The translations under genes were made by a program, and so were the position numbers. Of a DNA stretch of 64,000 nucleotides, positions 44,854 to 63,977 are shown in pieces. Under the pieces are notes generated by a model. It was not told where the DNA came from. It made no database searches and saw only the letters and a list, made by a program, of their open reading frames with translations. The stretch is taken from contig NZ_JAKLTQ010000002.1 of NCBI RefSeq assembly GCF_022012395.1, positions 1 through 64,000 of the forward strand, in the 5' to 3' direction. This DNA is from Arthrobacter hankyongi. Lineage in GTDB: Bacteria; Actinomycetota; Actinomycetes; Actinomycetales; Micrococcaceae. Position 1 is the first letter of the stretch, and each line of letters begins with the position of its first letter.

Positions 44854-45345
44854 CTACGCGTGGGAAGACAACAGCCAATCCACCTCGTTGAAGACGACGA
44901 TGAGGGGGTCGAACTCGGTGCCCTCGGAGTAGTTGCCGCCGAAAGCGTCGACCCCGGCCTCGAGGAGGCGGGGCGCATCAGAGATCAGAGCGACGCCCTG
45001 CTCGAGCAGCTGCTTGCGGTAGCTGCCTGACAGGAATGGCTTGTCCGAGATGTCGTCCGACAAGAGGAGAAGCTCGTCTCCGTCGACGCAGAGGGAAAGG
45101 TCCGAGAACCCCACCTGAAAAACGCCGTGGTGCGCCTGCAGCACGACGGAGCCTTCGAACCTCAGCGTCAGGGTCCCATCCTTTTCCTGGCCGCTGCCAG
45201 CGGCGAGCGGCCAGGAAAAGGAGCCCTGGTTGGATACCACGTCGCCCGCGAGCGTCACCTCGCCGTGGGCGCGGCCCACGTAGCTGAGCAACGAGTCCTT
45301 GATGCTCCAGGTCATGCCGCCAAACGGTCGAGCGTGTTCAGTCAC
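44854..45345 (-). CDS. HtaA-domain protein without signal peptide
   Basis: A 163-residue protein consisting of essentially one HtaA domain: GMTWSIKDSLLSYVGRAHGEV, FSWPLAAG, GTLTLRFEGSVVLQAHHGVFQVGFSDLSLCVDGDEL. In corynebacteria such domains bind haem on surface proteins, using a conserved Tyr and His; Tyr22 and His72/His73 are candidates here. Unlike those proteins it has no signal peptide or anchor, so it should be cytoplasmic. It is the last gene of the P450 operon, 9 bases after the reductase stop. GTG 45345 is the start. Haem handling for the P450 is a guess. Confidence 0.78.
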   Translation of the reverse strand: MTEHARPFGGMTWSIKDSLLSYVGRAHGEVTLAGDVVSNQGSFSWPLAAGSGQEKDGTLTLRFEGSVVLQAHHGVFQVGFSDLSLCVDGDELLLLSDDISDKPFLSGSYRKQLLEQGVALISDAPRLLEAGVDAFGGNYSEGTEFDPLIVVFNEVDWLLSSHA

Positions 45346-45354
45346 TGTGGTGGC

Positions 45355-46524
45355 CTACTTTCCAACTTCGCGGGAGTACTCGATGAGTTGCGGACCGTTG
45401 TCGAGGCCCGCAACGGCGACCAGCTGGTCGCCGCGGTAATAGCCCATTATCGGGGCACCGCGCATTTCACCCTCGAGGGATTCGATGCGATCTGCGATCC
45501 GCGGGAGGCCGTAAGCCTGGATCCGGTACTCGTACTGGTTGCTCCAGAACGAGGGCAGGGGTGTGAAATCGGCCACGGTTTCACTCGGCTGAGTGCCGGA
45601 TACCTGAAGGATCGACTGCGCGGCACGGCGAGCGGTTTCGACTGCGATGTTCCAATGTTCGATGCGGCGGGGTACATCATCGAACATCGGGTTTGGAAAC
45701 CGGGCGAGGTCGCCGATGGCGTACACGTTCTCGGAGCCTGCTGCTCGCAGCGAGTTGCCGCAAAGCACGCCGTCGGTGAGGTCGAGCAGCTCGGAGTCCA
45801 GCCACTCGTGATTGGGCAAGCTGCCGACCGCCTCGACGACCACGTCGGCCTCGATGATCTCTCCAGATGCGAGCTCGATTCTCGCGGCATCGGCGTTGAC
45901 CTCGGGAAGACGCTCGTTCACGCGAACGTCGACGCCCGCCTCCTCGTGCCGCTCCATGATCTTCTGCGCGAGCACACTGCCGAGCGCCGGCTGCAGCAGC
46001 TGTGCACTCGGGCACAGCAGGGTGACCTCGGCACCGAGAGCGCGGGCGCTGGCAGACACCTCTCCGCCGATAAACCCGCCGCCGATCACGACGACGCGGA
46101 AGCCTGGCCGGATGGCCTCCCGCAACCGCTCGGCATCGGTGAGCGTGCGCACGCGGTACACCCGACCGACGTTTCGTTCCCAAGCCAACGGCCGGGGGCG
46201 TACGCCCGACGCGGCGACGAGATAGTCGAAATCGAGCTCGCTTCCGTCGCTCAGTGTCACGGTGCTTCGCGCCACATCGGTGCTTACCGCGCTGACGCCG
46301 AGACGCCAGTCCGCCGAGCTGAGCGTCGGCCGCGTCTTGAACTGGATGTTCGCCAGTTCCGTGCCGGCGGTCAAGAAGTCCTTCGACAGCGGCGGACGAT
46401 TATACGGCATGACGACCTCGTCGCTGCAAACTACGATCTGGCCTTCGAATCCCTTGAGTTGGAGGTTCTCTACGAGGCGAAGCCCGCTTAGAGAACCTCC
46501 AACGACAACGACGCGCTTACTCAC
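45355..46524 (-). CDS. ferredoxin reductase (FAD/NAD), P450-system type
   Basis: A 389-residue rhodocoxin/putidaredoxin-reductase-type flavoprotein. FAD motif VVVVGGSLSGLRLVENL (GGSLSG at 9-14), NAD motif RVVVIGGGFIGGEVSASARALG, and the C-terminal FAD-contact motif GSENVYAIGDLARFPNP followed by HWNIAVETARRAA. It passes electrons from NAD(P)H to the ferredoxin. It overlaps the ferredoxin stop by 4 bases and is followed by the HtaA gene. Confidence 0.9.
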   Translation of the reverse strand: MSKRVVVVGGSLSGLRLVENLQLKGFEGQIVVCSDEVVMPYNRPPLSKDFLTAGTELANIQFKTRPTLSSADWRLGVSAVSTDVARSTVTLSDGSELDFDYLVAASGVRPRPLAWERNVGRVYRVRTLTDAERLREAIRPGFRVVVIGGGFIGGEVSASARALGAEVTLLCPSAQLLQPALGSVLAQKIMERHEEAGVDVRVNERLPEVNADAARIELASGEIIEADVVVEAVGSLPNHEWLDSELLDLTDGVLCGNSLRAAGSENVYAIGDLARFPNPMFDDVPRRIEHWNIAVETARRAAQSILQVSGTQPSETVADFTPLPSFWSNQYEYRIQAYGLPRIADRIESLEGEMRGAPIMGYYRGDQLVAVAGLDNGPQLIEYSREVGK

Positions 46525-46709
46525 TCAATGATCTCGATTGCGAGCAGCGGGCAGGCATCAGCAGCGGCCATCACGCGTTCGCGCTCGGACTCGTCGGGCT
46601 CAGCAATGTAGTTCACCTTGCCCTTGCCGTCAAGCTCGAACACGTTGGGGGCGGCGAAGACGCACTGCGCGTGTCCGTCGCAGGCATCCATATCAACACG
46701 AATCTTCAT
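46521..46709 (-). CDS. ferredoxin with CxxHxxC motif (3Fe-4S type)
   Basis: A 62-residue ferredoxin. Cys10, Cys16 and Cys53 (CP) are the visible cluster ligands. The second position of the usual CxxCxxC is His13 (CDGHAQC). This CxxHxxC pattern occurs in ferredoxins that serve actinobacterial P450s and usually marks a 3Fe-4S cluster. It lies 34 bases downstream of the P450 gene and overlaps the reductase gene, so the three form one electron chain. Confidence 0.9.
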   Translation of the reverse strand: MKIRVDMDACDGHAQCVFAAPNVFELDGKGKVNYIAEPDESERERVMAAADACPLLAIEIIE

Positions 46710-46743
46710 CTTTATTGGCTTTCTTTAGGAATTGTTGAATTGC

Positions 46744-47925
46744 TTATCGGACGGAGAGGGGAAGTTTGGTGACGCCGAGGCGCTCCCAGGTCATCCGCTC
46801 AGGGGTGCCGGCGAGTTCGACCCACTCGGTGCGGTCGAAGAGTTCCTCGACGGCAATGCGGATCTCCATCAGTGCAATAGAAAGACCGAGACAGCGGTGC
46901 GGGCCCCAGCCGAAGGTCATCGCGCTGGTGTTGTCACGGTAAATGTCGATCTCGTCGACGTTCTCGAAGTGCTCGCCGTCGCGGTTGGCTGAGCTCCAGA
47001 AGAACATCACCTCGTCGCCGGCGGGAAGTACCTGGTCGCCGATCTGGATGTCTTCCTTGAGTATGCGGCGCGAAGTCATCGCGGGGCTCTCGTGACGCAG
47101 AAATTCGAGGATCGCGTTCGGAATCAACGAGTAGTCGGCTCGCAGCGCTTTTTGAATCTCCGGGTTCTCCGCGATCTTCATCAGGGTGATGCCGGTGCTG
47201 CTGGTCGTGTTGTTGTGGCCGGCCGAAAGCATGAGGCGCACCACGCGTCCGACTTCGGTGCGGGTCAGCTTGCGGCCGTCGTATTCGAACTCCATGAGGC
47301 CGGCGATCATGTCCTCTTCGGGGTCGAGCGCCAGGCGGCTGCGCTCCTCGATCAGCTTCTCCGCGTACCGCGTGAGGTTCTCTTCGGCCTGCTGCGCAAG
47401 TTCGGGCTTGTTCTCGCGATCAGCGCGGTAGATGAAGCTCTCACCGGCCCAACGCTTGAGAGCGACGGCGTCTTCGACGGGGATACCGAGGAAGGCGCAA
47501 ATCACTTCCGCCGGGAAGGGGTAGGCGAAGTTGGTTGCGAAGTCGCCGCCGCCGGCATTGATGAGTGGCAGGAGCCGCTTGACGGCGAGCTCGCGGGTGA
47601 CCGGCTCGAGAGCTTCGATAGCCTCGCGCTTGAAGTACTTGGTCAGTGCACGGCGAAACACGGTGTGGCGGGGGCGGTCCACCTCAACCGGCGGAACGCG
47701 GCCGTCTGCGAACCGGGGCGTGATCTCGCTCGAGAACACCTTTACATTCATGGCGGCGGCGGCGATGTCGTCGTAACGCACGAGCGACCAAAAGCCATTG
47801 CCATTGTCGGTCCACGGGGTGGGGCGCTCGATGCGCATCTTTTCCTGCCAGCCGAGCGGGTTGTCGGTCACGGGGGCCGTTGTCGGATCCCAGTCGACAG
47901 TCTTCGGCGTTGAAGTCTGAGTCAT
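46744..47925 (-). CDS. cytochrome P450
   Basis: A 393-residue bacterial class I P450. I-helix oxygen motif SAGHNNTTSSTG, ExxR in LEFLRHESPAMTSRR, haem loop FGWGPHRCLG with the Cys ligand at about residue 345. ATG 47925 has AAGGTG upstream; longer frames run into non-family sequence. Ferredoxin, reductase and HtaA genes follow on the same strand. The family is not assigned: it may hydroxylate a terpenoid, aryl ether or similar small hydrophobic molecule, but nothing here proves which. Confidence 0.9.
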   Translation of the reverse strand: MTQTSTPKTVDWDPTTAPVTDNPLGWQEKMRIERPTPWTDNGNGFWSLVRYDDIAAAAMNVKVFSSEITPRFADGRVPPVEVDRPRHTVFRRALTKYFKREAIEALEPVTRELAVKRLLPLINAGGGDFATNFAYPFPAEVICAFLGIPVEDAVALKRWAGESFIYRADRENKPELAQQAEENLTRYAEKLIEERSRLALDPEEDMIAGLMEFEYDGRKLTRTEVGRVVRLMLSAGHNNTTSSTGITLMKIAENPEIQKALRADYSLIPNAILEFLRHESPAMTSRRILKEDIQIGDQVLPAGDEVMFFWSSANRDGEHFENVDEIDIYRDNTSAMTFGWGPHRCLGLSIALMEIRIAVEELFDRTEWVELAGTPERMTWERLGVTKLPLSVR

Positions 47926-48230: not shown

Positions 48231-48749
48231 ATGTCACTCGCAGCCACCCCAAGCGTTGAGACCGCTACGGCCACCCTCGATGCCGACCTGTTGAAGCGCT
48301 CTTTTGGGGCTTACCCGTCGGGCATCACGATTGTCACGGCCGACACGGCTAACGGGCTGGTCGGTTTCACCTGCCAGGCGTTCTTCTCGGTGTCGTTGGA
48401 GCCACCGCTGCTCGCGATCTCGGTGATGAACTCCTCGTCGTCGTACCCGGTGATCCGCGACCATCAGCGCTTCGCGGTCAATGTGCTCGCTGAGCACCAT
48501 GCGGAGCTTGCCCTGAAGTTCGCGCGCAAGACGGCGGATCGGTGGGAGGGGACCGGATGGCGTCATAGTGCCTGCGGTTCGCCGCTCATCGATGAGGCCG
48601 TCGTGACATACGACTGCGAGATTTGGTCGGAGGTGCAGGCGGGCGATCACACCATTGTGATCGCCCGGATCCTGGATGTGCACCTCACCGAGCATGTCAA
48701 GCGCGCCCCGATGGTGTACGTCGACAGCCGCTTCTGCGGCGTGAAGTAA
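48231..48749 (+). CDS. flavin reductase (FMN) family protein
   Basis: A 172-residue flavin-reductase-like protein. LKRSFGAYPSGITIVTADTANGLVGFTCQAFFSVSLEPPLLAISVMNSSSSYPVIRDHQRFAVNVLAEHHAELALKFARK is the family core; the C-terminus MVYVDSRFCGVK is typical. Such enzymes supply reduced FMN/FAD to a separate oxygenase. The best partner in the window is the acyl-CoA-dehydrogenase-fold monooxygenase at 61921. The stop lies 40 bases before the IS256 left target duplication. Confidence 0.88.
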   Translation: MSLAATPSVETATATLDADLLKRSFGAYPSGITIVTADTANGLVGFTCQAFFSVSLEPPLLAISVMNSSSSYPVIRDHQRFAVNVLAEHHAELALKFARKTADRWEGTGWRHSACGSPLIDEAVVTYDCEIWSEVQAGDHTIVIARILDVHLTEHVKRAPMVYVDSRFCGVK

Positions 48750-48788
48750 CGCACCCATCGGGGCTACGGCGCGGCGGTGCTCGTGTCG

Positions 48789-48796: not shown

Positions 48797-48805
48797 GGGC
48801 GTGTC

Positions 48806-48813: not shown

Positions 48814-48853
48814 GGCTCTGTCGCACTTTCGGTGGTGGTTGGGTGGACGTCCG

Positions 48854-50385
48854 TCAGCCGAGGAGGATGCGATGGCGGAGCAGGGTGAAGCCTGCCCGGC
48901 CGTACATCTGTCGCTTGAGCATCTTCGTGCGCGTATTCACGCTCTCGGTTCTGCCGTTGTGGTGAGCCTGGTGAGCGGGGCGAGGACGGCCTCATGGTCC
49001 TGCCCAAGTCCGCGGGCGAAGGAGTACACGTGCGGCAGGTCGGCAGACCAGGTGGTGCGGATCCACGTCCCGGGCCTGGCCGGGTTGGTCTCGTCGGGCT
49101 TGATGAGGCCGGCGAAATCCCGGATCAGGCCGCGCAGGGCGGTCATCTGCGGGCATGAGGCGGCGAGCCGGTCAAGACGCCCGCTCTGCCGGCCGGCCAG
49201 GTTCTCCGGCCTGGTCAGCAGCAGTCCGGTCGCACGGCGGGGCGACAGATGCGCCTGGTCCTCATCGGCCCGGCCCTGGCTCAGATAGCGGTGCAGCAGG
49301 TTCGCGCTGCCGGGATAGCCGAACTCGCGAATCTGATCCAGCAGCTGCGTGACCGGCACCCCGGGCTCTTCGGCCCGCCGACGCCGCAGATAATCGCGAT
49401 AGGGCTCCACGAGGGTGGGCCGGTACTGCGGAACACGTCGAAGGTGTTCGGGCTCGCTTGCACGGGCGTAGCGCTTGACCGTGTTCAGGCCCAGGTTCAG
49501 CCGTCGGCCGCAGTCCAGCAGCCCGACGCCCTGGTCGAGCAACCCGTGCACCTGGGCCCAGCGCTCGGCAGTCGTGCGGGTCCGGGGTCCGTCCTGCAGA
49601 GCTGCCGCTTCGGCCCAGCACGTGGAGTGGGCGGTGACCTCCTTGGCGGCGGCTTCGGCCAGACCGTGCCACAGGTGCCACCGGTCGGCAACCTGGACCG
49701 CTCCGGGCAGCGCGTCCCGGACGGCCTGGGCGTACGTGGCCGAGCCGTCCCGGCACACGATCCGCACTCCCGGACGGGTGCGAAGCCACTCGGTGAGGAC
49801 CGGGGCGCCCCGGCCGGCCAGCACGTCGATTCTCTGGCCGGTGTCGGCATCGATCAGCACCGTGGCATAGTCCCGGCTGCGGCGCAGCGCGAAGTCGTCG
49901 ATCCCCGGCACGCGCGGGACCGGACGTTCCGGCAGCGAGGTGCCCGGCAGCGTCCGCACCGCGGTGTCCCGTCCCGCGACGATCCCCAGGACCGGCAGCA
50001 GCCGGGCCGAGGCCCTGCCGGCAAGCTCGCGCACGAGGGCTCGGACCTGTTCCCTCAGCCGGACCGTGCGCCGCTCGTAGCGCTCCAGCAACCCCGGGAC
50101 CTGCTCCCGGAAGGTCTGCCGCGCGCAGCCAGATGACCGGCACCGCATCCGGCGCATGCGCACCCGCAGCAGCACGCGCCGCCCATCGACCGGCACGTCC
50201 GCCGGCATCCGCTCATGGAAGGCATGGACCCTCCGGGTCGGCGTCCCGCACGCAGGGCACTCCACCGCCCCGCCACGCGTCGACGCGCGAACCACGATCA
50301 CCCCGCCAGTGTCCTCGATCCCCTCGATCACCAACGCCGACAGCCCCGAGAACACCGTCCCGACCAGCATTTTCGCATCAACCAT
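48854..50385 (-). pseudogene. ISL3 family transposase, C-terminus shifted out of frame
   Basis: From ATG 50385 a 482-residue frame reads as an ISL3 transposase. It has an N-terminal zinc finger (CPACGTPTRRVHAFHERMP ... RCRSSGCARQTF) and the DDE region with DDFALRRSRDYATVLIDADTGQRIDVL. It ends at 48937 in LTTTAEPRA. The expected family C-terminus (HNGRTESVNTRTKMLKRQMYGRAGF...RHRILLG) is present in another frame from about 48961 to the TGA at 48854. One base near 48960 shifts it. It may be inactive or, less likely, read by frameshifting. Confidence 0.85.
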
Positions 50386-50413
50386 GCCCCATCATGAGAA
50401 GCCCGGAAGCCGC

Positions 50414-50439
50414 ACCACCACCGAAAGTGCGACAGAGCC
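50414..50439. repeat. ISL3 right inverted repeat
   Basis: Exact complement of the left repeat at 48814-48839, ending ...GCGACAGAGCC. Confidence 0.9.
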
Positions 50440-51748
50440 AAGTTTTCTGTGTAAGGGACCGGTCGGTTATCCGTTCAGCCGGGGGGCAGAGCGGGAGTCG
50501 GTTGGGAAATTGAACCGCGAACGCGTTGAGCGCCTGGTGCCATCCCTGGGTGCCGGTGCCGAACTCTCCGCCACGGGTGGTCTCGATGTTCCGGGTCTCC
50601 AGATAAACCAGCTTCAGGGCCGCCTCGTCCGAGGAGAACAAGCGCCTCGTCTTGGTGATCTTGCGCAGCTGGTAGTTGATCGATTCGATCTGGTTCGTTG
50701 TGTAGATGACCTTGCGGATCTCCGGGGTGAAGGCCAGGAACAGAATGAAGTCCTCCCAGGCGTTAAGCCAGGCCAACTCCGCCCCGCAGGCCCTCGCTTG
50801 CCAGGCCTCGGCGAAGGCCTCCATGGCCAGCTCCGCGGCCTGGACGGTGGCCGCGGTATAGATCGGTTTCATGTCCTTGGCCATGGTCTTGTGGTCCTTG
50901 TACGAGGCGTATTTCACGGCCGAGCGCAGCAGGTGACCCACGCAGGCCTGGACCACGGTCTAGGGGTAGATGCTGTTGACCGCGGCCGGCAGCCCGGTCA
51001 GCCCGTCGCAGCACAGTATCAGAATGTCCTTGGTGCCCCGGTTGCGGATCTCGGTGAGCACGTTGGCCCAGAACTTCGCCGCCTCGGTTGCACCGAGGGT
51101 GCGCCCCCAGTACCTGCTTGCGGCCCTCCAGATCCACGCCCACGGCCACGTGGCAGGCCTTGTTGACCATGACCCCGCCGTCGCGGATCTTGAGCCAGAT
51201 CGCTTCGATGTAGACGATCGGATAGACCGTCTCCAGCGGCCGGTTCTGCCACTGGACGATCTCGTCGGCCACCACGTCGGTGACCCGCCAGATCGTCGCG
51301 GCCGAGACCTTGGAGCCGTAGATCTCCTCCAGGTGAGAGCCGATGTCCGGGGTGGTCATCCCACGGGCGCACAGGGACAGGATCATGTCCTCGACCTTGC
51401 CCAGCCGGCGTGCCCCCTTGGGCACGATCACCGGCTCGAACGAACTGTTCCGGTCCCGCGGGACGGTGAGCAGCACCGGGCCCTGAAGGGGCTGGACGCT
51501 CTTGGTGGTCTTGCCATTGTGGGAGTTGCCGTGCCGTGTCCGGCGGGGGTCGCTGGCCTTGTAGCCGGAGTGGTGGCTGATTTCGGTCTCCAGGGACCGC
51601 TCCAGCACCGCCTGTGTCATCCTCGAGAGCAGATCTTCCACCCCGTGCCGGCCCTCGCCGAGATCCTCGGCGGAGGTCACCATTGCGTCGATCTGGTCGG
51701 CGCTGAGCACCCGGCCAAGGGGTTCTCCGTCAAGCTGTCTTCGGCCAT
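50440..51748 (-). pseudogene. IS256 family (mutator-type) transposase, degenerate
   Basis: Recognisable IS256 transposase in pieces. N-terminal MAEDSLTENPLA from ATG 51748, then DQIDAMVTSAEDLGEGRHGVEDLLSRMTQAVLERS... one frame away, consistent with a lost base near 51710. An extra G in a G-run near 51110 shifts VLGRTLGATEAAKFWANVL out of frame. An in-frame TAG follows near 50960 (in IYP-stop-TVVQACVGHLLRSAVKYASYKD). The original C-terminus ended ...SLTQKT-stop at the far side of the ISL3 insertion (48804-48806). The gene cannot make a full transposase. Confidence 0.88.
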
Positions 51749-51816
51749 GTGGCCCGTCCTCTCAGAAGATGAAACCCGCAGGTCACACATCGGATTGAGA
51801 CCGGACCCTTACACAG

Positions 51817-53103
51817 TCAATGAAACACTCTCGGGCCCCGACGGCGCGTACCGTCCAGGTACACCGGCATCCAGCGCACGAACCCGGCGACGCCGACGAA
51901 CCCTAGGGTGCTAAGCGTCGCGGCAGCAGCACCAAGCGGTAACCAGACCGTCACCGTCGCCACGAGCAGGGGGGCCAGGGCACTGCCGCCTTGCGTGAGT
52001 GTGCGCCATATGCCGATGAACGGTGACGGGTTGGAGCTGGGGGCGAGGTCGGAGGCGAGGGTGAGCAGCGCCCCGCTCGAAAGGCCGTTGCCGGCGCCAA
52101 GGATCACGGCGACCGCAACATACCATTCCACGCCCGGTTGGGTGACTGCAAGGCACAGGAGCCCGACGCTCATCGTCAGCGCAGCCGGCAACACCCCCCA
52201 CATGCGGCCGAGTCGGTCCATGATCTGTCCGCCCGGGTAAAAAAGAATGAGGTCGATCAGGCCAGAGAGCGCGATGACCGCGAGGATGGTGTCGGGGCCG
52301 AGCCCGATCGCGGTTCCCCAGAGAGGTAACAGCACCTGTCGACCCGACCGCACGAGGGCGAGGAGCGCAGAGGGAATCCCGAGCCGCAACAGCGGGCCGC
52401 GGTGCGCGATCGCTGTCGTGAAAAGGCCCTCCGGCGGTGCGCCCCCGGTAGGTGAAGCGGCGGATCCTCCCCCCTGTGGTGCCCCCGCCGTTGCATGAGG
52501 CGTCGACTCAAGAGCGCGCGCGGCCATGCGGTCCTGTGGCTCCGGAGCCACAGCGACGAACACCGTTGTGAGCAGGGCGCACCCAACGAACACCCAAACC
52601 GCTGACGAGGCCTCGCTCGTCAGCTGCAGCACCGCCCACGCCGCTAACGGTCCCGTGAATATGCCGGCGCGGTGCGTACCCCCGAGCAACGCAAGCGCCC
52701 GACCGCGGAAGGAGTAGGGCACGTGCAGGGTGAGAAACGCCTGGCGTGCCAACCCGTAGGTCGCTGATAAAGCGCCGACAGCGAACGCTGTCATTGCTAG
52801 GACGCTGCTGAACGACGCAAGGGCGATGCATACGCCGCAGACGACAGTGAGAGCGCCGGCGATCGTCATCGCCCATTTCTCGGGGCAGCGCGCGACGAGT
52901 GCGCCCGCGGGAATATTGCCGAGAAACTGGCCCAGCATGACAGCAGCAGCCAATAACCCCGCGACGCTCAGGTTCGCGCCGCGCTCGATAGCGAGCAGCG
53001 GCAGCAAGGGGATGAGGAGACCCTCTCCCAGAGAAAATAACAATGACGGGCCATAAACGATGGGTCCCAGCTTGAGCAGCGGATTGGCAGCAGGGGACGA
53101 CAT
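51817..53103 (-). CDS. MFS transporter with IS-altered C-terminus
   Basis: A 428-residue, 12-segment major-facilitator protein. FSLGEGLLIPLLPLLAIERGANLSVAG at the N-terminus and GGTHRAGIFTGPLAAWAVLQ in TM5 resemble drug/sugar-type MFS members. ATG 53103 has GGAGGTCGG upstream. Its last four residues (RVFH) and stop come from the IS256 element. Without the insertion the frame would have read on to DTSTAAP-stop at 48764. All membrane segments are intact, so it may still work. It is divergent from the aldehyde dehydrogenase operon. Substrate unknown; probably the compound degraded by this island. Confidence 0.86.
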   Translation of the reverse strand: MSSPAANPLLKLGPIVYGPSLLFSLGEGLLIPLLPLLAIERGANLSVAGLLAAAVMLGQFLGNIPAGALVARCPEKWAMTIAGALTVVCGVCIALASFSSVLAMTAFAVGALSATYGLARQAFLTLHVPYSFRGRALALLGGTHRAGIFTGPLAAWAVLQLTSEASSAVWVFVGCALLTTVFVAVAPEPQDRMAARALESTPHATAGAPQGGGSAASPTGGAPPEGLFTTAIAHRGPLLRLGIPSALLALVRSGRQVLLPLWGTAIGLGPDTILAVIALSGLIDLILFYPGGQIMDRLGRMWGVLPAALTMSVGLLCLAVTQPGVEWYVAVAVILGAGNGLSSGALLTLASDLAPSSNPSPFIGIWRTLTQGGSALAPLLVATVTVWLPLGAAAATLSTLGFVGVAGFVRWMPVYLDGTRRRGPRVFH

Positions 53104-53251
53104 CCGACCTCCGACGGTGATGAACAGCGTGAGTGACCCCGCACCCGTCGATGGATGAAGCACGATGTCGAGGTGCAGTAAGAACACCGACCAGATTAGG
53201 TCAGCATTTGTCGGTTGACGTATGCGCTTTCGTGATGTGGACGATTGGAAT

Positions 53252-54811: not shown

Positions 54812-54857
54812 ATACAAGAAGCACACGAGACAAGACGCACAATACAAAGGAGTTGGC

Positions 54858-55916: not shown

Positions 55917-56650
55917 TGGTCAACCCCTTCGCAGCAGCTCGTTCGCCGTGGCAGGGCTGGCCCGAGATCGGCCAGCCGCAGTTCGCCGGTGGCCCGGGAT
56001 GGGTCGACGTGAGTCACCCCATTACCGAGTCTCTTTCCCGGGCCCCCTCGTTTCCACAGCCGGTCATCAAGAAGATTGAAAACCTACCCGATGATCCCGC
56101 CAATGTGACGCACGTCAGCATGGCCGTGCACCACGGAACGCATGTGGATGCGCCGAGCCACTTCTACGCGGACGGGCCCACGATGGATCAGATCCCGCTC
56201 GAGCGCCTGTACGGTCGTGGGGTACTATACCGGGTGGCCGCCGAAGCCGGCGCGCAACTCACCGTCGAGCAGATCCAGGGCTCCGGCCCCGCGCCGCAAC
56301 TCGGCGACATCGTGCTGATCGACACCGGGTGGCACCGGTATATGAACCAGGAGCTCTACTTCGATGCGCCATCGCTCAGCGTGGCAGCCGCGGAGTGGCT
56401 GCGCGATGCCGGCGTCAAGCTCGTTGGCCTCGACGCGAGTACGCCCGATCTCCCCGCGCACCGGAGAACCCCCGGATTCGACTGGCCGGTACATCAGATC
56501 CTGCTCGGGTCAGGGGTGCTCATTGCTGAGCACATGGCCAACCTGAGCGCCCTGGAGCCGGGTGCCATCGAGGCCTTCTTCGGCGTGACGTCATTTGTTG
56601 GGGCAGATGCGGGCCCGGCTCGAGTGATTGCGAGGAATATTCATGACTGA
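55916..56650 (+). CDS. cyclase family hydrolase (kynurenine formamidase-like)
   Basis: A 244-residue metal-dependent hydrolase of the cyclase family. The metal-binding motif HHGTHVDAPSH (residues 72-82) fits HxGTHxDxPxH, and DVSHPITESL and LDASTPD match the family. Known members hydrolyse formyl-kynurenine or isatin, or open small rings. It sits in a catabolic operon, so ring or amide/lactone opening is plausible here. It shares one base with the dehydrogenase stop and overlaps the CoA-transferase by 8 bases. Confidence 0.86.
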   Translation: MVNPFAAARSPWQGWPEIGQPQFAGGPGWVDVSHPITESLSRAPSFPQPVIKKIENLPDDPANVTHVSMAVHHGTHVDAPSHFYADGPTMDQIPLERLYGRGVLYRVAAEAGAQLTVEQIQGSGPAPQLGDIVLIDTGWHRYMNQELYFDAPSLSVAAAEWLRDAGVKLVGLDASTPDLPAHRRTPGFDWPVHQILLGSGVLIAEHMANLSALEPGAIEAFFGVTSFVGADAGPARVIARNIHD

Positions 56651-57866
56651 TTCGACAGTGACCGAGATGCCGGCTACCACGGGGACATCAACGAAGGCGG
56701 CAACGGCAGGACTCCCGCTAGAGGGAGTCCGAGTTCTCGATTTGACAGGGTTTCTGTCGGGCCCGTTCGGGAGCCAGATCCTCGGCGATCTCGGCGCCGA
56801 GGTGCTGAAGATCGAGCCCCCCGAGGGCGACAACTCGCGATCGGTACCGCCGTACTTCGTCGGGGACGCCAGCGTGTACTACCTCAGCACCAACCGAAAC
56901 AAGAAGAGTGCGGTCATCAACCTGAAGGACCCTGACGGCCAGCGAGTCGTGAAGGGCCTCATAGCCAAGAGCGACATCGTGCTCGAGAACTTCAGACCGG
57001 GCGCGCTTCAGCGCCTTGGGCTCGACTACGAGACGATCGCGGCCGACATTCCGAGCATTATCTGGTGCTCGATCAGCGGCTTTGGGCAAGACGGTCCCTA
57101 CGCGCACCGGCCCGCCTACGACATGATCGTGCAAGCCTACTCCGGCGGCATGAGCCTCACCGGTGAGCGCGGCGGGGTACCGGTGCGCGCCGGGCTTCCG
57201 ATCGGTGACCTGACGGCGGGGCTGTACGGCGTCATCGCGGTGCTGGCCGCGCTGAATAAGCGCGCTCACACGGGCGAGGGTGACTACATTGACATTTCGA
57301 TGCTCGACTGCCAGCTCGCGTTCCTCAGCTACCAGGGCGCCTACTACCTGCACTCGGGAAAGGTGCCGGGTACTCAGGGGCGCGCGCACGACTCGATTCC
57401 GACCTACCGCTGCTTCAGGGCTGGCGACGGCATCGACGTGGCGGTGACTGCGAACACTGAGGGGATGTGGGAAGCGCTGTGCGGAGTGCTCGGCCTAGCC
57501 GAGCTCATTGAAGATGACCGTTTCCGCACCCTCGCCGACCGCCACCGGAATCGCGGTGAGCTCGAGCCGCTACTCGAGGAGGCCTTCCTCGCCCTCGGTG
57601 CCGACCAGTGGGTCGAACTGCTCACCGATGCCGGGGTGCCTGTCGCGCCGGTGAACACTGTCGACCGCGCGCTCGCCGACACTCAAGCACGTCACCGGAA
57701 TATGGTGGTCGAGCTGCAGGATGAGTCGGGTGAGCAGAACGTTCGGGTGGTCGGCAACCCGCTGAAGTTCCGCAGCATGTCGAGCCAACTGCTCAACTAC
57801 CCGCCGAATCTTGGGGAGCACACCGAGGAGATCATTGCATTGTCGGGAGTAACTCATGGTGAGTGA
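56643..57866 (+). CDS. CaiB/BaiF (class III) CoA-transferase
   Basis: A 407-residue class III CoA-transferase. LEGVRVLDLTGFLSGPFGSQILGDLGAEVLKIEPPEGDNSR is the N-terminal family signature. Asp160 in AYDMIVQAYSG is in the position of the catalytic Asp. VENFRPGALQRLGLDYE and GDYIDISMLDCQL follow. It would activate a pathway acid as its CoA ester, taking CoA from another acyl-CoA. ATG 56643 overlaps the previous stop. Both partners of the transfer are unknown. Confidence 0.92.
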   Translation: MTDSTVTEMPATTGTSTKAATAGLPLEGVRVLDLTGFLSGPFGSQILGDLGAEVLKIEPPEGDNSRSVPPYFVGDASVYYLSTNRNKKSAVINLKDPDGQRVVKGLIAKSDIVLENFRPGALQRLGLDYETIAADIPSIIWCSISGFGQDGPYAHRPAYDMIVQAYSGGMSLTGERGGVPVRAGLPIGDLTAGLYGVIAVLAALNKRAHTGEGDYIDISMLDCQLAFLSYQGAYYLHSGKVPGTQGRAHDSIPTYRCFRAGDGIDVAVTANTEGMWEALCGVLGLAELIEDDRFRTLADRHRNRGELEPLLEEAFLALGADQWVELLTDAGVPVAPVNTVDRALADTQARHRNMVVELQDESGEQNVRVVGNPLKFRSMSSQLLNYPPNLGEHTEEIIALSGVTHGE

Positions 57867-58797
57867 TGTTCGAGTCGGAGTGATCGGGCTCGGGAACATG
57901 GGTGCAGCCCTGGCCCAACGCCTGCAGGAACTCGTCGCTGAAGTAGTGGTGTTCGATGTGCGTGCTGAAGCCATGACCACCGCGGCGCGGTTCGGGGCAA
58001 CAGCCTCTTTGAGCCCTCGTGAGGTCGGCGAGCGATCCGACGTCGTCGTGGCGTCCTTGCCGTCGCCCGCGATCGCCCTGGAGGTGGCCCAGGAGGTCGG
58101 CACGAGTACCCAGCTCCGGGCGTATGTAGAGACATCAACCGTGGGCCCGCTCGCGGTGCGGAAGATCGCCTCGGCGCTCGCGGTTCCGGTCATCGACGCG
58201 CCCCTCAGCGGGGGACCACGAGGGATCCTGAGTGGCAAGCTCACAAGTTATGTGTCAGGGCCCGAAGCAATCCGCCAGGAGATCGCAAACTGGTTTGACG
58301 AACTCTGCCCCATTCGGATCGTGGTGGGCGAGCAGGCGGGCGTCGCGCAGATCGCGAAGCTCGTGAACAACGCTGTATCGCTGAGCGGCATGGCGATCGC
58401 CTGCGAGGCGATCGCCGTTGGTGTGGCCTCCGGCGTCGACCCGAAGACCGTCGTCGAGGCGGTGAACTCTGGAACCGGGCGGAACTCCGCGACGGAGAGC
58501 AAGATCCCGAAGTCCGTCCTCACCGGCACCTTCGACTTCGGAGGTCCGGTATTTCTTGCGGAGAAGGATCTGGAGTTGTACCAGTCCCTCGCAGAGGAAG
58601 CGGGGATCCGAGAGTCGCTCACGAATTCCGCACTTGAGGCGTTCCGTGAGGCGATCCTGAAATTCGGGGTGAACGCTGACTACACCGAGATTGCGCGCGT
58701 CTTCGAGAGCGCCGTCGGTGCGGAAATTCGCCATCGGCCCGCAGTTGCGGGCGGGGGACTCGGCAGCAATGGCTGGCGATCCGAACATTTAGATTGA
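57856..58797 (+). CDS. beta-hydroxyacid dehydrogenase (HIBADH-like)
   Basis: A 313-residue NAD(P)-dependent dehydrogenase. Rossmann motif GLGNMGAALAQ (11-21), substrate motif DAPLSGGPRGILSG, and catalytic Lys in GVAQIAKLVNNAVSLS. It is a homologue of, but clearly different from, the valine-pathway MmsB at 10057. It overlaps the CoA-transferase stop by 11 bases. In this operon it probably oxidises or reduces a hydroxyacid or hydroxyacyl intermediate. Confidence 0.9.
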   Translation: MVSDVRVGVIGLGNMGAALAQRLQELVAEVVVFDVRAEAMTTAARFGATASLSPREVGERSDVVVASLPSPAIALEVAQEVGTSTQLRAYVETSTVGPLAVRKIASALAVPVIDAPLSGGPRGILSGKLTSYVSGPEAIRQEIANWFDELCPIRIVVGEQAGVAQIAKLVNNAVSLSGMAIACEAIAVGVASGVDPKTVVEAVNSGTGRNSATESKIPKSVLTGTFDFGGPVFLAEKDLELYQSLAEEAGIRESLTNSALEAFREAILKFGVNADYTEIARVFESAVGAEIRHRPAVAGGGLGSNGWRSEHLD

Positions 58798-60108: not shown

Positions 60109-60111
60109 CGC

Positions 60112-61635
60112 TTAGAAGTACAGCTCGCCCAGGAGGGACTGGATGTCGTGCACCTCGTCGATGTTGCGGAGCCGCTGCACTAGGCGATCGGCCGCGTCAC
60201 CGAAGAACGGCCGCGCGAGTGCGACGAACTTCTCGTCGACAGCCGCCGTGCCCATCTCGACGCCACGGTTGAAGGCCCAACTCGTCTCCGTCGAGCCGTC
60301 GTCGAAGCGAACGGTGACGGCGGCCCAGTTGCAATCGTCAACTGACGGCACAGCCGGCGCGAGCTTGATGAAGTCAGGGTCGATCGTCAGCGCGATCTCG
60401 CTGAGCAGGCCGGCCTCCTGAATGCGATCGAAGGTCTCCTGCTCATACGAGTCGACCGTCACCTTGCCGTCGAGCCACGCGGCGGCGATGCCATACGGGA
60501 GGCTGAACTTGCCCTCGAGCGGTGTCTGCGGCCAGGTGCGGAAGACGGCGCCCCGCTCCGGGTCTGTGGGTACGGTAATTTCGATGCCGGCGATACTTCC
60601 GCGGTCAAACTCGGGGCGATCGATCATGGAGAACATCGCGGTGAGCACCGCATTGTTGCCGCCGCAGGCCGGCCACGGTTTGAAGCTCGGGCCGCGGCTC
60701 AGGTTTGGTCCGCCACGAAGCTGATCGCTCGGAGCGCCGAGACCGACCTTGGAGGGGTTGGGCATACTGCCAGTGTGCGTGGGCGGGAACCTGTTCTCGT
60801 TGAGCGGGCTGCCTGCACTGAGGTCCATGGGGACGCGCGTGATCCAGAAATCCTCGGTCGCGGAACCATAGTGCACTTCGACCTCGGCTTCGGGATCGCA
60901 GTACGCGGCGAAGAATCCCTTCCGTCCCTCAAAGACCCCAGGGTCAGCGGTCCAGCCGGATTGGGCGAGTGTTGCAGCAAGGTACCCGGCCTCGGCAGCG
61001 CGGCCCGCGTGCAACGGCTTCGTAAAGGTGCCGAAGTTCTCGGTGAGCCCTGAACTCATGGAGGCTGCAATGCTGAGCGCGAGTATGGCCTTTTCCTCGT
61101 CGAGCTTCAGGAGTTTGGCAGCGACCGCGGCTGCGCCGATCGCGCCGGCTGTGCCGATGGGGTGCTGCGGACGGCCGTGGGCGAGCATAGTCGTGACCCG
61201 GGCAGCGACTTCAAAGCCGGCGACCAGCGCGACGATGACCTCTTCACCCGTGACCTCACGGGTCTCGGCGATCGCGAGTGCCGGGGGCAGTTCAACCGCA
61301 GCGAAGTGCGGAATGTCATCGAAGTCGAGGGCGTGCATGAGCGTCCCGTTGGTTAGCACCGCTGAGCGAGCGTCAGTCTTCCGGGAGGTCGCGAGCACGG
61401 CGTGCGCGCCCGGAACGTCGGGCAGCCACTGCTGTAAAGCTGCGCCAATATCTGTGCGTGTTGCCGCCAAGCCGCATGCGAGGCCGTCGACCAGCATCGA
61501 CTTCGCCTGCGCGATCGCCTGCTCGGGCAATTGGTCATAGCTCAGGTTCACGATGAAGCGCGCATGTTTTGACGCCACCGTATCCTGCGCCTGAGTGGTT
61601 GAGTGGCTACTCAACGTCCGTGTGACTGCTCCCAT
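60112..61635 (-). CDS. MmgE/PrpD family protein
   Basis: A 507-residue MmgE/PrpD-fold protein. LVDGLACGLAATRTDIG, NGTLMHALDFDDIPHFAAVELPPALAIAE and HGRPQHPIGTAGAIGAAAVAAKLLKLDEEKAILALSIAASMSSGL are the family core. Members act as dehydratases, decarboxylases or epimerases on small di- or tricarboxylates. ATG 61635 has AGGAGG 10 bases upstream. It is divergent from the monooxygenase gene with two palindromes between them. The substrate is unknown; it may process a carboxylated product of the operon at 53294-59701. Confidence 0.88.
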   Translation of the reverse strand: MGAVTRTLSSHSTTQAQDTVASKHARFIVNLSYDQLPEQAIAQAKSMLVDGLACGLAATRTDIGAALQQWLPDVPGAHAVLATSRKTDARSAVLTNGTLMHALDFDDIPHFAAVELPPALAIAETREVTGEEVIVALVAGFEVAARVTTMLAHGRPQHPIGTAGAIGAAAVAAKLLKLDEEKAILALSIAASMSSGLTENFGTFTKPLHAGRAAEAGYLAATLAQSGWTADPGVFEGRKGFFAAYCDPEAEVEVHYGSATEDFWITRVPMDLSAGSPLNENRFPPTHTGSMPNPSKVGLGAPSDQLRGGPNLSRGPSFKPWPACGGNNAVLTAMFSMIDRPEFDRGSIAGIEITVPTDPERGAVFRTWPQTPLEGKFSLPYGIAAAWLDGKVTVDSYEQETFDRIQEAGLLSEIALTIDPDFIKLAPAVPSVDDCNWAAVTVRFDDGSTETSWAFNRGVEMGTAAVDEKFVALARPFFGDAADRLVQRLRNIDEVHDIQSLLGELYF

Positions 61636-61780
61636 AAGCGTAGTGCCTCCTGCCAGTGATGTAGGTATCAGCCGAATACTAGGTTCGTGAGGCAAGGCCC
61701 GGCCAAGTTCGCAATGGCATGCCGGTGATAGCTCCGGGTGATGAAGCACAGTGTAATTTCACCCGCCGTTCTTATGGCCG

Positions 61781-61807
61781 GCGGTGATCACAAAAAGTGA
61801 TCACCGC
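61781..61807. promoter_or_regulatory. GCGGTGATCAC-N5-GTGATCACCGC operator candidate
   Basis: Perfect 11-base inverted arms (61781-61791 and 61797-61807) around AAAAA, midway between the divergent PrpD and monooxygenase genes. Each arm also contains the small palindrome TGATCA. This is the clearest operator-like site in the island. Confidence 0.72.
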
Positions 61808-61903
61808 ATAGCGGAATTGGTCTTGGTGACCTTTTTCACAGGCTGTTAGCGTCTAAGCCGGTCAAGTTTACGCAACGCACCAGGGCCGGTGCATGAGACG
61901 CCG

Positions 61904-61917
61904 AGAACATCGATGTT
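61904..61917. promoter_or_regulatory. GAACATCGATGTTC palindrome at monooxygenase start
   Basis: A perfect 14-base palindrome ending 3 bases before the GTG start. It could be a protein-binding site or a hairpin that affects translation. It replaces the place where a ribosome binding site would be expected. Confidence 0.5.
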
Positions 61918-61920
61918 CGG

Positions 61921-63156
61921 GTGCCGAAAGTGAGTGAAATGTTTAAGAATCTTGTTCTAAGCGGCTCGTTGACTGACGCGGAGCGTCAGTATCTTGATCG
62001 AGTCGCCGGACTGATCCCCGTACTCCGGGACGAGGCCGCTGCCGCGGAAGAAGGTCGGAAGGTCACCGCGCCTGTGATGGACGCGGCGGTCGAGGCTGGA
62101 CTGTTCTCGGCACTGGTGCCTGCTCGCTTCGGCGGTCAGGCGCTGGGCCTTCGCTCGCTGACCGAGGCGGCCCGCCTGCTCGCCCGTGGCGACGCTTCGA
62201 CTGCGTGGGCGCTCGCGTTCCTCATAGAACATAACTGGATGGCCGGCCGCATGCCGATCCCGGTCCAGGAGAAGCTCTTTGCTGACCGCAACTACATGCT
62301 CGCTGCGGCGCCGCTGGTCTCGGGTGGTCCGGCCACACGCGAAGAAGACGGCAGCTACCGCATCACCGGCACCTGGCGCTACGGTACCGGCTATGACAAC
62401 TCCGATTGGGTGTTCGTCACCTGCACGATCCAGGAGGAGGACGGCCCGGTCGACCGCGTCTTCATGCTCCCGGTCGATGCCGTCGAGGTCGTTCAGCGCT
62501 GGGAGGCGTCGGGTATGGCGGCGACCTCGAGCCACAACCTGCGCGGCGAGGATCTGATCGTTCCCGCTGAGCGTAGCCTTCCGATTCCCGACTTTGTGTC
62601 GGCGGACTCGCATGGTGGCATCGAGCACATTGAGTCGATCTACCACTACCCGCTGCACTTTGGTCTGAACAACATGATGGCGGGCATCTTCGTGGGGATT
62701 GCCGAAGCGGTCCTCGATCTCTACGAGGGCAAGCTGGAGTCGAGCCGTCCGTTCGGGCTCGCCCGCAAGGAACGCACGCCGTCTCGCATTCGCTGGGCCG
62801 CGGCTCGCAAGCGGATCGAGGCCGCGCGCCTGCTGTACTTTGCCACGATCGATTGGACGGTTGAGCTGTGCGAGAAGCGCGAGGGGTACACCCAGGAGGA
62901 CATCGGCGAACTCCAACTCTCTTCGCTGACCATCGCGCATATGTGCCACGACGCAGTGAACCAGCTCTGCATGGGCATCGGATCGAGCGCGTTTGCACTG
63001 AAGGACCCGATTCAGCGCTACAAGCGTGATATCGATGTGCTGATCAACCATGCGGGTCTCGATTGGGACGTAGTGGCGGACCGCGCATCGCGCTGGTCGC
63101 TCGGCTTCGGGGCCGAGACGACCGACTGGCACTCGTCGCCTGCGAAGGGCAAGTGA
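61921..63156 (+). CDS. acyl-CoA dehydrogenase-fold flavin monooxygenase
   Basis: A 411-residue protein of the acyl-CoA dehydrogenase superfamily. VMDAAVEAGLFSALVPARFGGQALGLRSLTEAARLLARGDASTAWALAF matches group D flavin monooxygenases (HsaA, DszC, HpaB-like) rather than true acyl-CoA dehydrogenases. The catalytic Glu region of the latter is not evident. Such enzymes use reduced flavin from a separate reductase; the flavin reductase at 48231 is the candidate. GTG 61921, GTG 61930 or ATG 61939 could start it. It overlaps the next gene by 4 bases. Confidence 0.86.
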   Translation: MPKVSEMFKNLVLSGSLTDAERQYLDRVAGLIPVLRDEAAAAEEGRKVTAPVMDAAVEAGLFSALVPARFGGQALGLRSLTEAARLLARGDASTAWALAFLIEHNWMAGRMPIPVQEKLFADRNYMLAAAPLVSGGPATREEDGSYRITGTWRYGTGYDNSDWVFVTCTIQEEDGPVDRVFMLPVDAVEVVQRWEASGMAATSSHNLRGEDLIVPAERSLPIPDFVSADSHGGIEHIESIYHYPLHFGLNNMMAGIFVGIAEAVLDLYEGKLESSRPFGLARKERTPSRIRWAAARKRIEAARLLYFATIDWTVELCEKREGYTQEDIGELQLSSLTIAHMCHDAVNQLCMGIGSSAFALKDPIQRYKRDIDVLINHAGLDWDVVADRASRWSLGFGAETTDWHSSPAKGK

Positions 63157-63977
63157 TCGTTGTGAATACGCAGCATAGTTTCAACACGGAACAGTTCATC
63201 TGCGGGCTCTTCGGTGCCGACCCCGCCGTCGCGGAGCTAATCGACGAGGCCGCGACGGTCGACATTCCTCGCATCGGGCGGGTGTGCGGATCGCGGGGGC
63301 TCGAGCAGACCGTACGCTCCTGGCGTGCCGTATACCCCTACGAGCTGATCGGTGCGGAGGTACGCAACGTCATTACCACAGAAACCGGCCTCGTCTCGGA
63401 ATTCCGCCTGCTGCTGCGCGAGGGCGATCGCGAGTTCATTCTTCCCGTTGCCGTTGTCGCGTCGAGTGACAGCGAGGAGCAGTTCGTTCGGCTGTACCAT
63501 TCGGAGCGGCTGATTCACGGGGAGCGGAGGGGGCGACGTGCAGTGTGGCCTGCCGAGGATGGACAGTATCCGACCGCATTCGACGAGTATCACCCGGCGA
63601 TCCGCAACTATATGGCGGCGATCGCGAGCGGCGCGGCCGAGAACGTCACCGCGCGACTCGCCGAGGGTGCGGCACTCGACAATGGCGTGCGGCCGGTTGC
63701 CGACGCTGATGAACTGCTCGCGGTCTTTACCGCGATGGTGCGCACGGGCGGTGCACGTCTTGTGCGACGCAACGAGTTCGACAACGGCACGACCGTTGCG
63801 CTCGAGTACACGAGCCTGCCGCGACCAGGCGTTGCTGCCGGCGCACCGCGGACGCCGCCCGGTGGGGGCATCGGCATCTACGACTACGACGGGTCACACC
63901 TGATTCGTGCCGTTCGGATGTACGACGATTTCGACCCGGAGATGCTCATCGCCGCAGGAAGAAACACTGACAACTGA
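63153..63977 (+). CDS. NTF2-like (SnoaL-type) protein, 274 aa
   Basis: A 274-residue protein made of two halves that each resemble an NTF2/SnoaL cone fold (IGRVCGSRGLEQTVRSWRAVYPYELIGAEVRNVITTETGLVSEFRLLLREGDREFILPVAVVASSD; then NYMAAIASGAAENVTARLAEGAALDNGVRPVADADELLAVFTAMV). GTG 63153 overlaps the monooxygenase stop; GTG 63162 is an alternative. It is probably co-transcribed with the monooxygenase and may catalyse an isomerisation or hydration of its product. Function unknown. Confidence 0.72.
   Translation: MIVVNTQHSFNTEQFICGLFGADPAVAELIDEAATVDIPRIGRVCGSRGLEQTVRSWRAVYPYELIGAEVRNVITTETGLVSEFRLLLREGDREFILPVAVVASSDSEEQFVRLYHSERLIHGERRGRRAVWPAEDGQYPTAFDEYHPAIRNYMAAIASGAAENVTARLAEGAALDNGVRPVADADELLAVFTAMVRTGGARLVRRNEFDNGTTVALEYTSLPRPGVAAGAPRTPPGGGIGIYDYDGSHLIRAVRMYDDFDPEMLIAAGRNTDN

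What the first reader, a model, noticed from the sequence alone, without database searches (positions are those of the whole stretch)
44854..63977. Second catabolic island with no recognisable known pathway
Seen: a P450 with ferredoxin, reductase and HtaA protein; flavin reductase; MFS transporter; aldehyde and alcohol dehydrogenases; cyclase-family hydrolase; class III CoA-transferase; beta-hydroxyacid dehydrogenase; amidohydrolase; MmgE/PrpD protein; ACAD-fold monooxygenase; NTF2-like protein. Known families allow oxidation of an alkyl or ring carbon, ring or amide opening, CoA activation, and decarboxylation or hydration. I know no described pathway with this exact set. Inference: two oxygenation routes (P450 and two-component flavin monooxygenase) act on one substrate, with the six-gene operon degrading the products.
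Basis: partly seen in the sequence, partly recalled or inferred. Interest (0 to 1): 0.85.

Follow-up and report, generated by a model that had tools for sequence, protein, structure and literature searches.

The report
P450 operon with cytosolic heme-binding partner
A soil bacterium's degradation gene island carries an enzyme operon (cytochrome P450 plus its electron carriers) that includes a small cell-interior relative of bacterial heme-scavenging proteins, and such proteins recur beside P450 genes in related bacteria, which suggests an unreported helper that handles heme for P450s.

Summary
Two insertion sequences (48814-50439, 50449-51814) separate the P450/flavin-reductase part from the six-gene operon. 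Beyond the window the cluster runs into an ABC importer, a LysR regulator and a probable maleylacetate-reductase/hydroxyquinol-dioxygenase pair. No syntenic copy was found in 72,556 plasmids; the best listed P450 relatives are 30-37% identical. The substrate stays unknown.

The striking part is the fourth gene of the P450 operon: a single-domain HtaA (CR) protein with no hydrophobic N-terminus and both heme-pocket residues (Tyr22, His72) kept. Of 68 other HtaA proteins judged cytosolic in related actinobacteria, 32 lie within 3 kb of a P450 gene (29 on the same strand), against 0 of 17 long-chain, presumably secreted HtaA and about 1-3% by chance in four genomes. The linked P450s fall into about ten groups under 40% identity with different electron partners. 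But 36 of 68 have no such neighbour, and none of 19 P450-centred loci held an HtaA. I think it is an optional heme-handling partner (loading or holding heme) of these P450s; partnership is likely, direction and mechanism unproven. The paper searches found no report of such a link.

The parts
44854..45345 (-). single-domain HtaA (CR-domain) protein, 163 aa, no N-terminal hydrophobic segment; heme-pocket Tyr22 and His72 kept
   Evidence: PF04213 E=1.9e-21, 77.8 bits against cut-off 24; matches solved HtaA CR domains; ligands; hydropathy
45355..46524 (-). ferredoxin reductase (FAD), overlaps the end of the ferredoxin gene by 4 bp, ends 9 bp before HtaA
   Evidence: PF07992, PF14759; coordinates
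46521..46709 (-). 62-aa ferredoxin of the single-cluster P450-partner kind
   Evidence: ORF; BLAST match to the ferredoxins at L046 and L047; cluster type inferred by eye
46744..47925 (-). cytochrome P450, 393 aa from the ATG at 47925; divergent; I-helix AGHNNT by motif
   Evidence: PF00067; closest solved chain E=6e-56; motifs; listed relatives at most 37% identical in 296 class genomes
48231..48749 (+). flavin reductase (HsaB/HpaC-like), divergent from the P450 operon
   Evidence: PF01613 E=1.5e-43; HsaB model 117 bits, under its cut-off 230
48814..50439 (.). ISL3-type insertion sequence with 24-bp inverted ends and 8-bp flanking repeat AAGTTTTC
   Evidence: PF01610, PF14690; ends and flanks
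50449..51814 (.). IS256/Mutator-type insertion sequence, transposase split over two frames
   Evidence: PF00872 in two separate ORF pieces; end motifs
51817..53163 (-). MFS transporter (start uncertain), its 3' end abuts the IS256-type element
   Evidence: PF07690
53294..54811 (+). aldehyde dehydrogenase, first gene of the six-gene operon
   Evidence: PF00171 E=1.7e-167; ATG read
54858..55916 (+). zinc-type alcohol dehydrogenase (start uncertain; ORF 54693-55916)
   Evidence: PF08240, PF00107
55916..56650 (+). cyclase-family metal hydrolase
   Evidence: PF04199; distant match to kynurenine formamidase and isatin hydrolase chains
56628..57866 (+). class III CoA-transferase, nearest model succinate-glutarate CoA-transferase
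   Evidence: PF02515; NF052585 326.9 bits, under its cut-off 750
57856..58797 (+). beta-hydroxyacid dehydrogenase
   Evidence: PF14833, PF03446
58820..59701 (+). amidohydrolase (Amidohydro_2)
   Evidence: PF04909 E=3e-45
60112..61749 (-). MmgE/PrpD-family protein, divergent (start uncertain)
   Evidence: PF03972, PF19305; nearest chains IDS-epimerase and cis-aconitate decarboxylase
61921..63156 (+). acyl-CoA-dehydrogenase-fold flavin monooxygenase (HsaA/HpaH-like)
   Evidence: PF08028; p-hydroxyphenylacetate hydroxylase model 141 bits, under its cut-off 650; HsaA, XiaF and C2 chains
63063..63977 (+). SnoaL/NTF2-like protein (true start probably about 63168)
   Evidence: PF12680 E=6e-6, 27.2 bits against cut-off 27

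Best explanation
The left half of the interval is a four-gene P450 operon (P450, ferredoxin, ferredoxin reductase, HtaA). NAD(P)H electrons pass through reductase and ferredoxin to the P450, which oxidises an unknown substrate (inferred from the families). The HtaA protein is a cytosolic member of the CR-domain hemophore family that has become an accessory of P450 systems. It most likely binds heme through Tyr22 (with His72 as helper) and hands it to newly made apo-P450, or holds and returns heme lost by it. Shown here: domain identity, kept ligand residues, absence of a hydrophobic N-terminus, and repeated adjacency to P450 genes of about ten groups. Inferred: heme binding by this protein, physical contact with P450, direction of heme transfer. 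The right half is a separate set of catabolic genes, split off by two insertion sequences and running past the window towards probable hydroxyquinol cleavage; its substrate is unknown.
For: HtaA profile match 77.8 bits and match to solved CR domains. Axial Tyr in 37 of 37 and helper His in 36 of 37 cytosolic HtaA rows, window included; the one exception (L055) has Tyr, the helper used by ChtA in PMC12494546 (passages). No hydrophobic stretch ahead of the domain in 65 of 67 loci with cytosolic rows (exceptions L186, where it lies before the likely start, and L197, which is not P450-linked). P450 within 3 kb: 16 of 36, 15 of 21 and 1 of 11 further cytosolic HtaA, so 32 of 68, of which 29 on the same strand; long-chain, presumably secreted HtaA 0 of 17 and 0 of 4 regions with signal-like short ones; Fisher p=0.0005 for 16/36 against 0/17. 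Prediction test: 7 of 7 new hits scoring above the window's own protein stand on the same strand as a P450 within 1.13 kb. 32 P450s (window and L049 included) form 10 groups at 40% identity. 4-22 P450 matches in four genomes give about 1-3% by chance (my estimate). L110 has the same order, P450-ferredoxin-reductase-HtaA. A secreted HtaA takes heme from cytochrome P450 in vitro (PMC8027190, passages), so heme exchange between the two folds is possible.
Against: 36 of 68 cytosolic HtaA have no P450 within 3 kb, including whole ortholog groups (L121/L203-L211; L044/L054/L114/L115/L118/L212; L124/L125/L217/L218), so the domain has other roles. P450s as a rule have no HtaA neighbour: none of 19 P450-centred loci (17 with 1.5 kb and 2 with 10 kb of flank) held an HtaA match. 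Three of them are single-chain relatives of linked P450s, seen upstream only, where linked ones have their HtaA. The known in-vitro transfer runs from P450 to HtaA. The counted loci are related and not independent; the second and third sets were found mostly with a profile made of linked members; in P450-rich genomes of the class chance is higher (84 first-look candidates in 9.4 Mb in G383, would give up to about 6%). No structure of this protein was obtained. Heme loading of recombinant bacterial P450s in E. coli without HtaA is routine (recalled).
Confidence: 0.55

Rival explanations
1. HtaA is a heme salvage or holding protein: it takes heme from damaged or turned-over P450 and so limits free heme when P450 is strongly expressed, rather than loading new P450.
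For: [quoted passage not shown] Ligand residues kept. Would explain why HtaA is optional.
Against: None of 19 P450-centred loci had an adjacent HtaA; other heme enzymes would need salvage as well, yet P450 is the neighbour that I saw to recur (other heme enzymes were not searched for).
Confidence: 0.25
2. HtaA is not about heme traffic but a structural or regulatory subunit of the P450 complex, or binds a hydrophobic substrate in the pocket.
For: Adjacency alone does not tell function; electron partners also vary among linked loci.
Against: The Tyr and helper His/Tyr residues are kept in 37 of 37 rows, which a non-heme role would not need.
Confidence: 0.12
3. The whole interval is one new catabolic pathway with two oxygenases on one substrate.
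For: All genes are of catabolic families, no matching cluster was found; the P450 cluster at L049 also has MFS and ALDH genes, and L108 has ADH and PrpD genes (partly by eye), so parts of the palette recur with HtaA-linked P450s.
Against: Two insertion sequences lie inside; the P450 block occurs without the rest (L110); the right half continues into other genes outside the window.
Confidence: 0.2
4. HtaA next to P450 is an accident of gene crowding in small genomes.
For: Loci are related, so counts are inflated; the profile search favoured linked types.
Against: 0 of 17 long-chain HtaA and about 1-3% expected against 29 of 68 on the same strand; about ten P450 groups; 7 of 7 in the prediction test.
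Confidence: 0.05

Closest known systems
CR-domain hemophores HtaA/HtaB/ChtA of Corynebacterium (Pfam PF04213)
   Same: Domain profile, axial Tyr and helper His (PMC12494546 passages)
   Different: Those are secreted or wall-anchored and feed HmuTUV; this one has no hydrophobic N-terminus, a single domain, and stands fourth in a P450 operon
Class I bacterial P450 systems with ferredoxin and ferredoxin reductase (e.g. thc, eth, mor gene sets, recalled)
   Same: P450, small ferredoxin, FAD reductase in one operon
   Different: Fourth gene is HtaA; I-helix acid and alcohol residues both read Asn (AGHNNT); listed relatives of the P450 are about 30-37% identical
Cytoplasmic heme-trafficking proteins of bacteria (HemW, CgdH2, HtpA/TANGO2)
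   Same: Proposed job: passing heme inside the cell
   Different: Different protein families (recalled), no P450 client named; the review that I read in passages (PMC11442138) contains the word P450 zero times
GAPDH/Hsp90 heme delivery to human CYP3A4 and CYP2D6
   Same: Heme supply to apo-P450 by a partner protein (PMC10840333, abstract and outline)
   Different: Human cells, general carriers, not a gene in the P450's own operon
Two-component class D flavin monooxygenases (HsaAB, HpaH/HpaC, XiaF)
   Same: Genes 61921 and 48231 match both components
   Different: The NCBIfam scores for both are under the curated cut-offs; the two genes are 13 kb apart with two insertion sequences between

Membership tests
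HtaA/CR-domain family (PF04213) | profile score above the curated cut-off | tested here: met
   77.8 bits against 24
HtaA/CR-domain family (PF04213) | axial Tyr and helper His/Tyr in the heme pocket | tested here: met
   Y22 and H72 align with the ligands
HtaA/CR-domain hemophore (extracellular heme uptake) | secretion signal and wall or membrane anchor | tested here: not met
   highest 19-residue hydropathy 1.02, in the first 60 residues 0.69; four long-chain HtaA gave 2.08, 1.75, 0.52 and -0.49 in the first 60, the last two with a cut or doubtful start; no signal-peptide program was available
HtaA/CR-domain hemophore (extracellular heme uptake) | placed with heme uptake genes (hmuTUV) | tested here: not met
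   neighbours are FdR, ferredoxin and P450; no heme transporter among the island genes scanned
HtaA/CR-domain family | binds heme | not testable with these tools
   needs protein
Class I P450 system | heme-Cys motif, ExxR, ferredoxin and reductase genes in the operon | tested here: met
   FGWGPHRCLG, EFLR; (ferredoxin by eye and BLAST)
Class I P450 system | acid-alcohol pair in the I helix | tested here: not met
   AGHNNT by motif; known P450s also vary here, so not decisive
Two-component class D flavin monooxygenase | oxygenase and flavin reductase of matching type | tested here: inconclusive
   best models under their cut-offs; partner gene distant
Hydroxyquinol pathway (outside the window) | hydroxyquinol dioxygenase and maleylacetate reductase | tested here: inconclusive
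   L003:8735-9670 and 7591-8685 match only intradiol-dioxygenase and Fe-ADH models under cut-off; names rest on my recall of the families

The most novel reading that the evidence does not exclude
Cytosolic single-domain HtaA proteins include a dedicated heme-loading family for bacterial P450s: the CR-domain hemophore fold was moved inside the cell and joined, several times, to P450 operons of about ten groups, where it delivers heme to the apo-enzyme. That would be a client-specific heme chaperone for a soluble cytosolic monooxygenase encoded in the client's own operon.
Probability: 0.45. Interest if true: 0.85.

Novelty: new variant of a known kind. Interest (0 to 1): 0.68.

Why it matters
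How bacterial cytosolic P450s receive their heme is, as far as I know, open; the review read here in passages says that heme trafficking inside bacteria is not self-evident and that only a few cytoplasmic proteins are known for it (PMC11442138). An operon-encoded heme-binding partner makes the question testable with two small proteins and a deletion. It could also help P450 production for biotechnology, where heme occupancy often limits yield (recalled). For the island itself, the finding says where to start: the P450-HtaA operon is a unit, the rest need not be.

Tried and rejected
Substrate from relatives: plasmid searches for the whole interval, P450, HtaA, flavin monooxygenase, SnoaL, CoA-transferase and PrpD gave only matches in the IS and ALDH stretches or sub-60% family matches, and none for HtaA and SnoaL; reading four neighbourhoods gave no shared gene order. 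One scan of genome contigs with the P450 gave two loci at 29-30% identity, without HtaA.

Pathway from the amidohydrolase: 60 of 296 class genomes, the own one included, have a match at E<=1e-30, but the nine neighbourhoods printed show other genes; rejected as a guide to the substrate. Gamma-resorcylate-type pathway: considered because of amidohydrolase plus two-component monooxygenase plus hydroxyquinol genes; rejected as unproven because the only solved relative of the amidohydrolase found was 3irs.

A clean P450-only HtaA clade: the 54-row tree suggested one grouping, but with 75 rows (short search) linked members lie in both halves, so I dropped the claim. HtaA as an obligatory partner: rejected. 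A first look for HtaA beside P450s by plain tblastn was too blunt (it also missed the HtaA of L046), so it was repeated with profiles.

Limits of the counts: candidates were chosen from the listings, mainly by open frame (about 280 aa or less), plus longer frames L056, L112, L117, L118, L124, L125, L189, L217 and L218 whose own start looked short. Of 16 such short frames besides the window's, 15 were read first; the sixteenth (G047) was read and has a signal-like N-terminus. From one search's listing 20 regions were taken and 14 (with one, G572); of the 15 regions, four (L213, L214, L216, L219) carry signal-like N-termini or multi-domain chains and were left out of the 11 cytosolic rows. Some longer frames (for example G670, G747, G760; G859:C78, G872:C6) were never fetched. 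P450 genes were found with a profile of my own from nine P450s. L111, L113 and L116 were counted as secreted by chain length. Distances are between domain matches.

Structure: the fold of the window HtaA alone was accepted but had not finished when last asked, so no model was used.


Full report
What is there. The window is bases 1-64000 of a 459,452-base contig of a 5.19-Mb genome. G+C per 2 kb is 62-68% in 46-64 kb, against 66-73% in 8-42 kb. First, an ISL3-type element at 48814-50439, with 24-bp inverted ends and the 8-bp repeat AAGTTTTC on both sides, and next to it an IS256/Mutator-type element at 50449-51814 whose transposase is in two frames. They separate the P450 operon and flavin reductase from the MFS gene and the six-gene operon (ALDH, ADH, cyclase, CoA-transferase, beta-hydroxyacid dehydrogenase, amidohydrolase). 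Second, the cluster does not end at 64000: on L003 follow, by eye, an ABC importer and a LysR regulator, then an iron-alcohol-dehydrogenase-fold protein and an intradiol dioxygenase. I read the last two as maleylacetate reductase and hydroxyquinol dioxygenase by recall; the curated models match only under their cut-offs.

Is it a known pathway? I could not find one. Megablast of the interval against 72,556 plasmids found 12 records, with matches only in the IS and ALDH stretches. Protein searches found only relatives under 60% identity for P450, flavin monooxygenase, CoA-transferase and PrpD, and none for HtaA and SnoaL, and four neighbourhoods read in full share no gene order. The P450 is divergent: the listed matches in 296 class genomes are 30-37% identical (the list is cut), the 25 listed plasmid matches under 35%, and the nearest solved chains are a reconstructed CYP125 and others. 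Its I helix reads AGHNNT where most P450s have an acid and a threonine. The substrate cannot be named from this.

The HtaA lead. The last gene of the P450 operon encodes a 163-aa protein that is one HtaA/CR domain (77.8 bits, cut-off 24). CR domains are known from secreted hemophores; they hold heme by an axial tyrosine with a helper histidine, or a tyrosine in ChtA (PMC12494546, passages). Here Tyr22 and His72 align with those residues and there is no hydrophobic N-terminus. In one search this protein was searched in 198 relatives. Of 15 short-frame hits read with their flanks, 10 had a P450 gene within 3 kb, all 10 on the same strand, five of them within 40 bases between domain matches. The sixteenth short frame of that listing (G047) was read later; it has a signal-like N-terminus and no P450 nearby.

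Counting. I then took further hits from 394 class genomes, 396 order genomes and 197 family genomes, fetched flanks of about 6 kb where the contig allowed, and looked for P450 genes with a profile. Without the window: 16 of 36, 15 of 21 and 1 of 11 cytosolic HtaA have a P450 within 3 kb, in all 32 of 68; 29 are on the same strand and 11 within 30 bases. In 65 of the 67 loci that hold these 68 there is no hydrophobic stretch ahead of the domain. Of long-chain HtaA, presumably secreted, 0 of 17 have a P450 (Fisher p=0.0005 for the first set), nor do the four regions with signal-like proteins. Four genomes hold 4 to 22 P450 matches, which makes about 1-3% expected by chance (my estimate; up to about 6% in a P450-rich genome such as G383, from the candidate count). 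As a prediction test I built a profile from 15 linked proteins, the window's included, and searched the family: 7 of 7 new hits that score above the window's own protein have a P450 on the same strand within 1.13 kb (one of these P450s is a piece at a contig end). Lower-scoring hits are mixed: one ortholog group has none (L121, L203-L211).

Diversity. The 32 P450s that could be compared (window and L049, at 3.2 kb, included) form 10 groups at 40% identity. Electron partners differ: the small ferredoxin plus reductase in the window, and divergently placed in L047 and L120; a [2Fe-2S] ferredoxin at L055 (Pfam) and by eye at L110; separate pyridine-nucleotide reductase and flavodoxin at L050; and single chains of P450, pyridine-nucleotide reductase and flavodoxin at L043 and L051. 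L110 repeats the window's order P450-ferredoxin-reductase-HtaA. L049 (P450, MFS, ALDH, ferredoxin, reductase) and L108 (P450, ferredoxin, reductase, ADH, PrpD; partly by eye) share part of the window's palette. A first tree put long-chain HtaA in one clade (99/98) and most linked ones apart from unlinked ones; with 75 rows, linked members lie in both halves. So the link arose more than once or was lost often.

Against. Just over half of cytosolic HtaA (36 of 68) have no P450 within 3 kb. P450s as a rule have no HtaA: none of 19 P450-centred loci did, including three single-chain relatives of linked P450s, of which only the upstream side was seen. So HtaA is an optional helper, not a general need. 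The loci are related, and part of them was found with a profile of linked proteins, so the counts overstate independence.

Mechanism. Best reading: a cytosolic heme-binding protein that supplies heme to, or keeps heme for, the P450 of its operon. [quoted passage not shown] That shows exchange is possible, but in the salvage direction. In human cells, GAPDH and Hsp90 supply heme to CYP3A4 and CYP2D6 (PMC10840333, abstract and outline). A review of bacterial heme homeostasis discusses HemW, CgdH2 and HtpA in its passages on heme trafficking and holds the word P450 zero times (PMC11442138, passages). Searches for a printed HtaA-P450 link gave none in the listings or in the passages that I read of five papers; the library holds open-access papers only.

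Verdict. I put partnership between P450-linked cytosolic HtaA and P450 at about 0.85, heme handling as its nature at 0.75, and loading rather than salvage at about 0.5.

Noticed in passing
L043:5542-8937, L051:5493-8564 (also L045, L052, L053, L105, L144-L146): Single chains of about 1,000-1,220 aa: P450, pyridine-nucleotide reductase of the adrenodoxin-reductase look, flavodoxin (Pfam on L043 and L051; the rest by homology and length). Best solved match of the P450 part is 6g71. One search listed nine papers, none with a title on such natural fusions; I read none of them.
   Followed up: partly
L003:13793-18001 and contig 12:81082-82715: A second P450 followed by phosphoenolpyruvate-synthase-like genes, a [2Fe-2S]-type ferredoxin and a reductase (by eye), right after the island. 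Resembles the cre set for 4-cresol by recall; a known kind.
   Followed up: partly
contig 12:100001-101882 (L064): A second dioxygenase and Fe-ADH-fold pair, 73% and 66% identical to the pair at L003:7591-9670, beside a 621-aa protein that looks like a flavin monooxygenase: two copies of the probable hydroxyquinol step about 30 kb apart.
   Followed up: no
window 48814-51814: ISL3-type element inserted 9 bases from the end of a decayed IS256-type element.
   Followed up: yes
window 37469-41158: Extradiol dioxygenase (above the curated cut-off of one MhpB model) and a 3-(3-hydroxyphenyl)propionate hydroxylase-like gene (under the cut-offs) upstream of the island.
   Followed up: partly
window 43971-44782: Two open frames of 126 and 144 aa with no Pfam match between the first island and HtaA.
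   Followed up: no
contig 1:566155 (L044) and contig 12:226593 (L056): The same genome has two more HtaA genes that look cytosolic and have no P450 in the flanks read, of a type recurring in the genus: a second role for the domain inside the cell.
   Followed up: partly
L043, L045, L050-L053, L105, L122 P450s: Several HtaA-linked P450s have unusual I-helix motifs (GLNEP, SDAP) in place of the acid-threonine pair; P450s without HtaA in view (L144, L147) share GLNEP, so not specific.
   Followed up: partly
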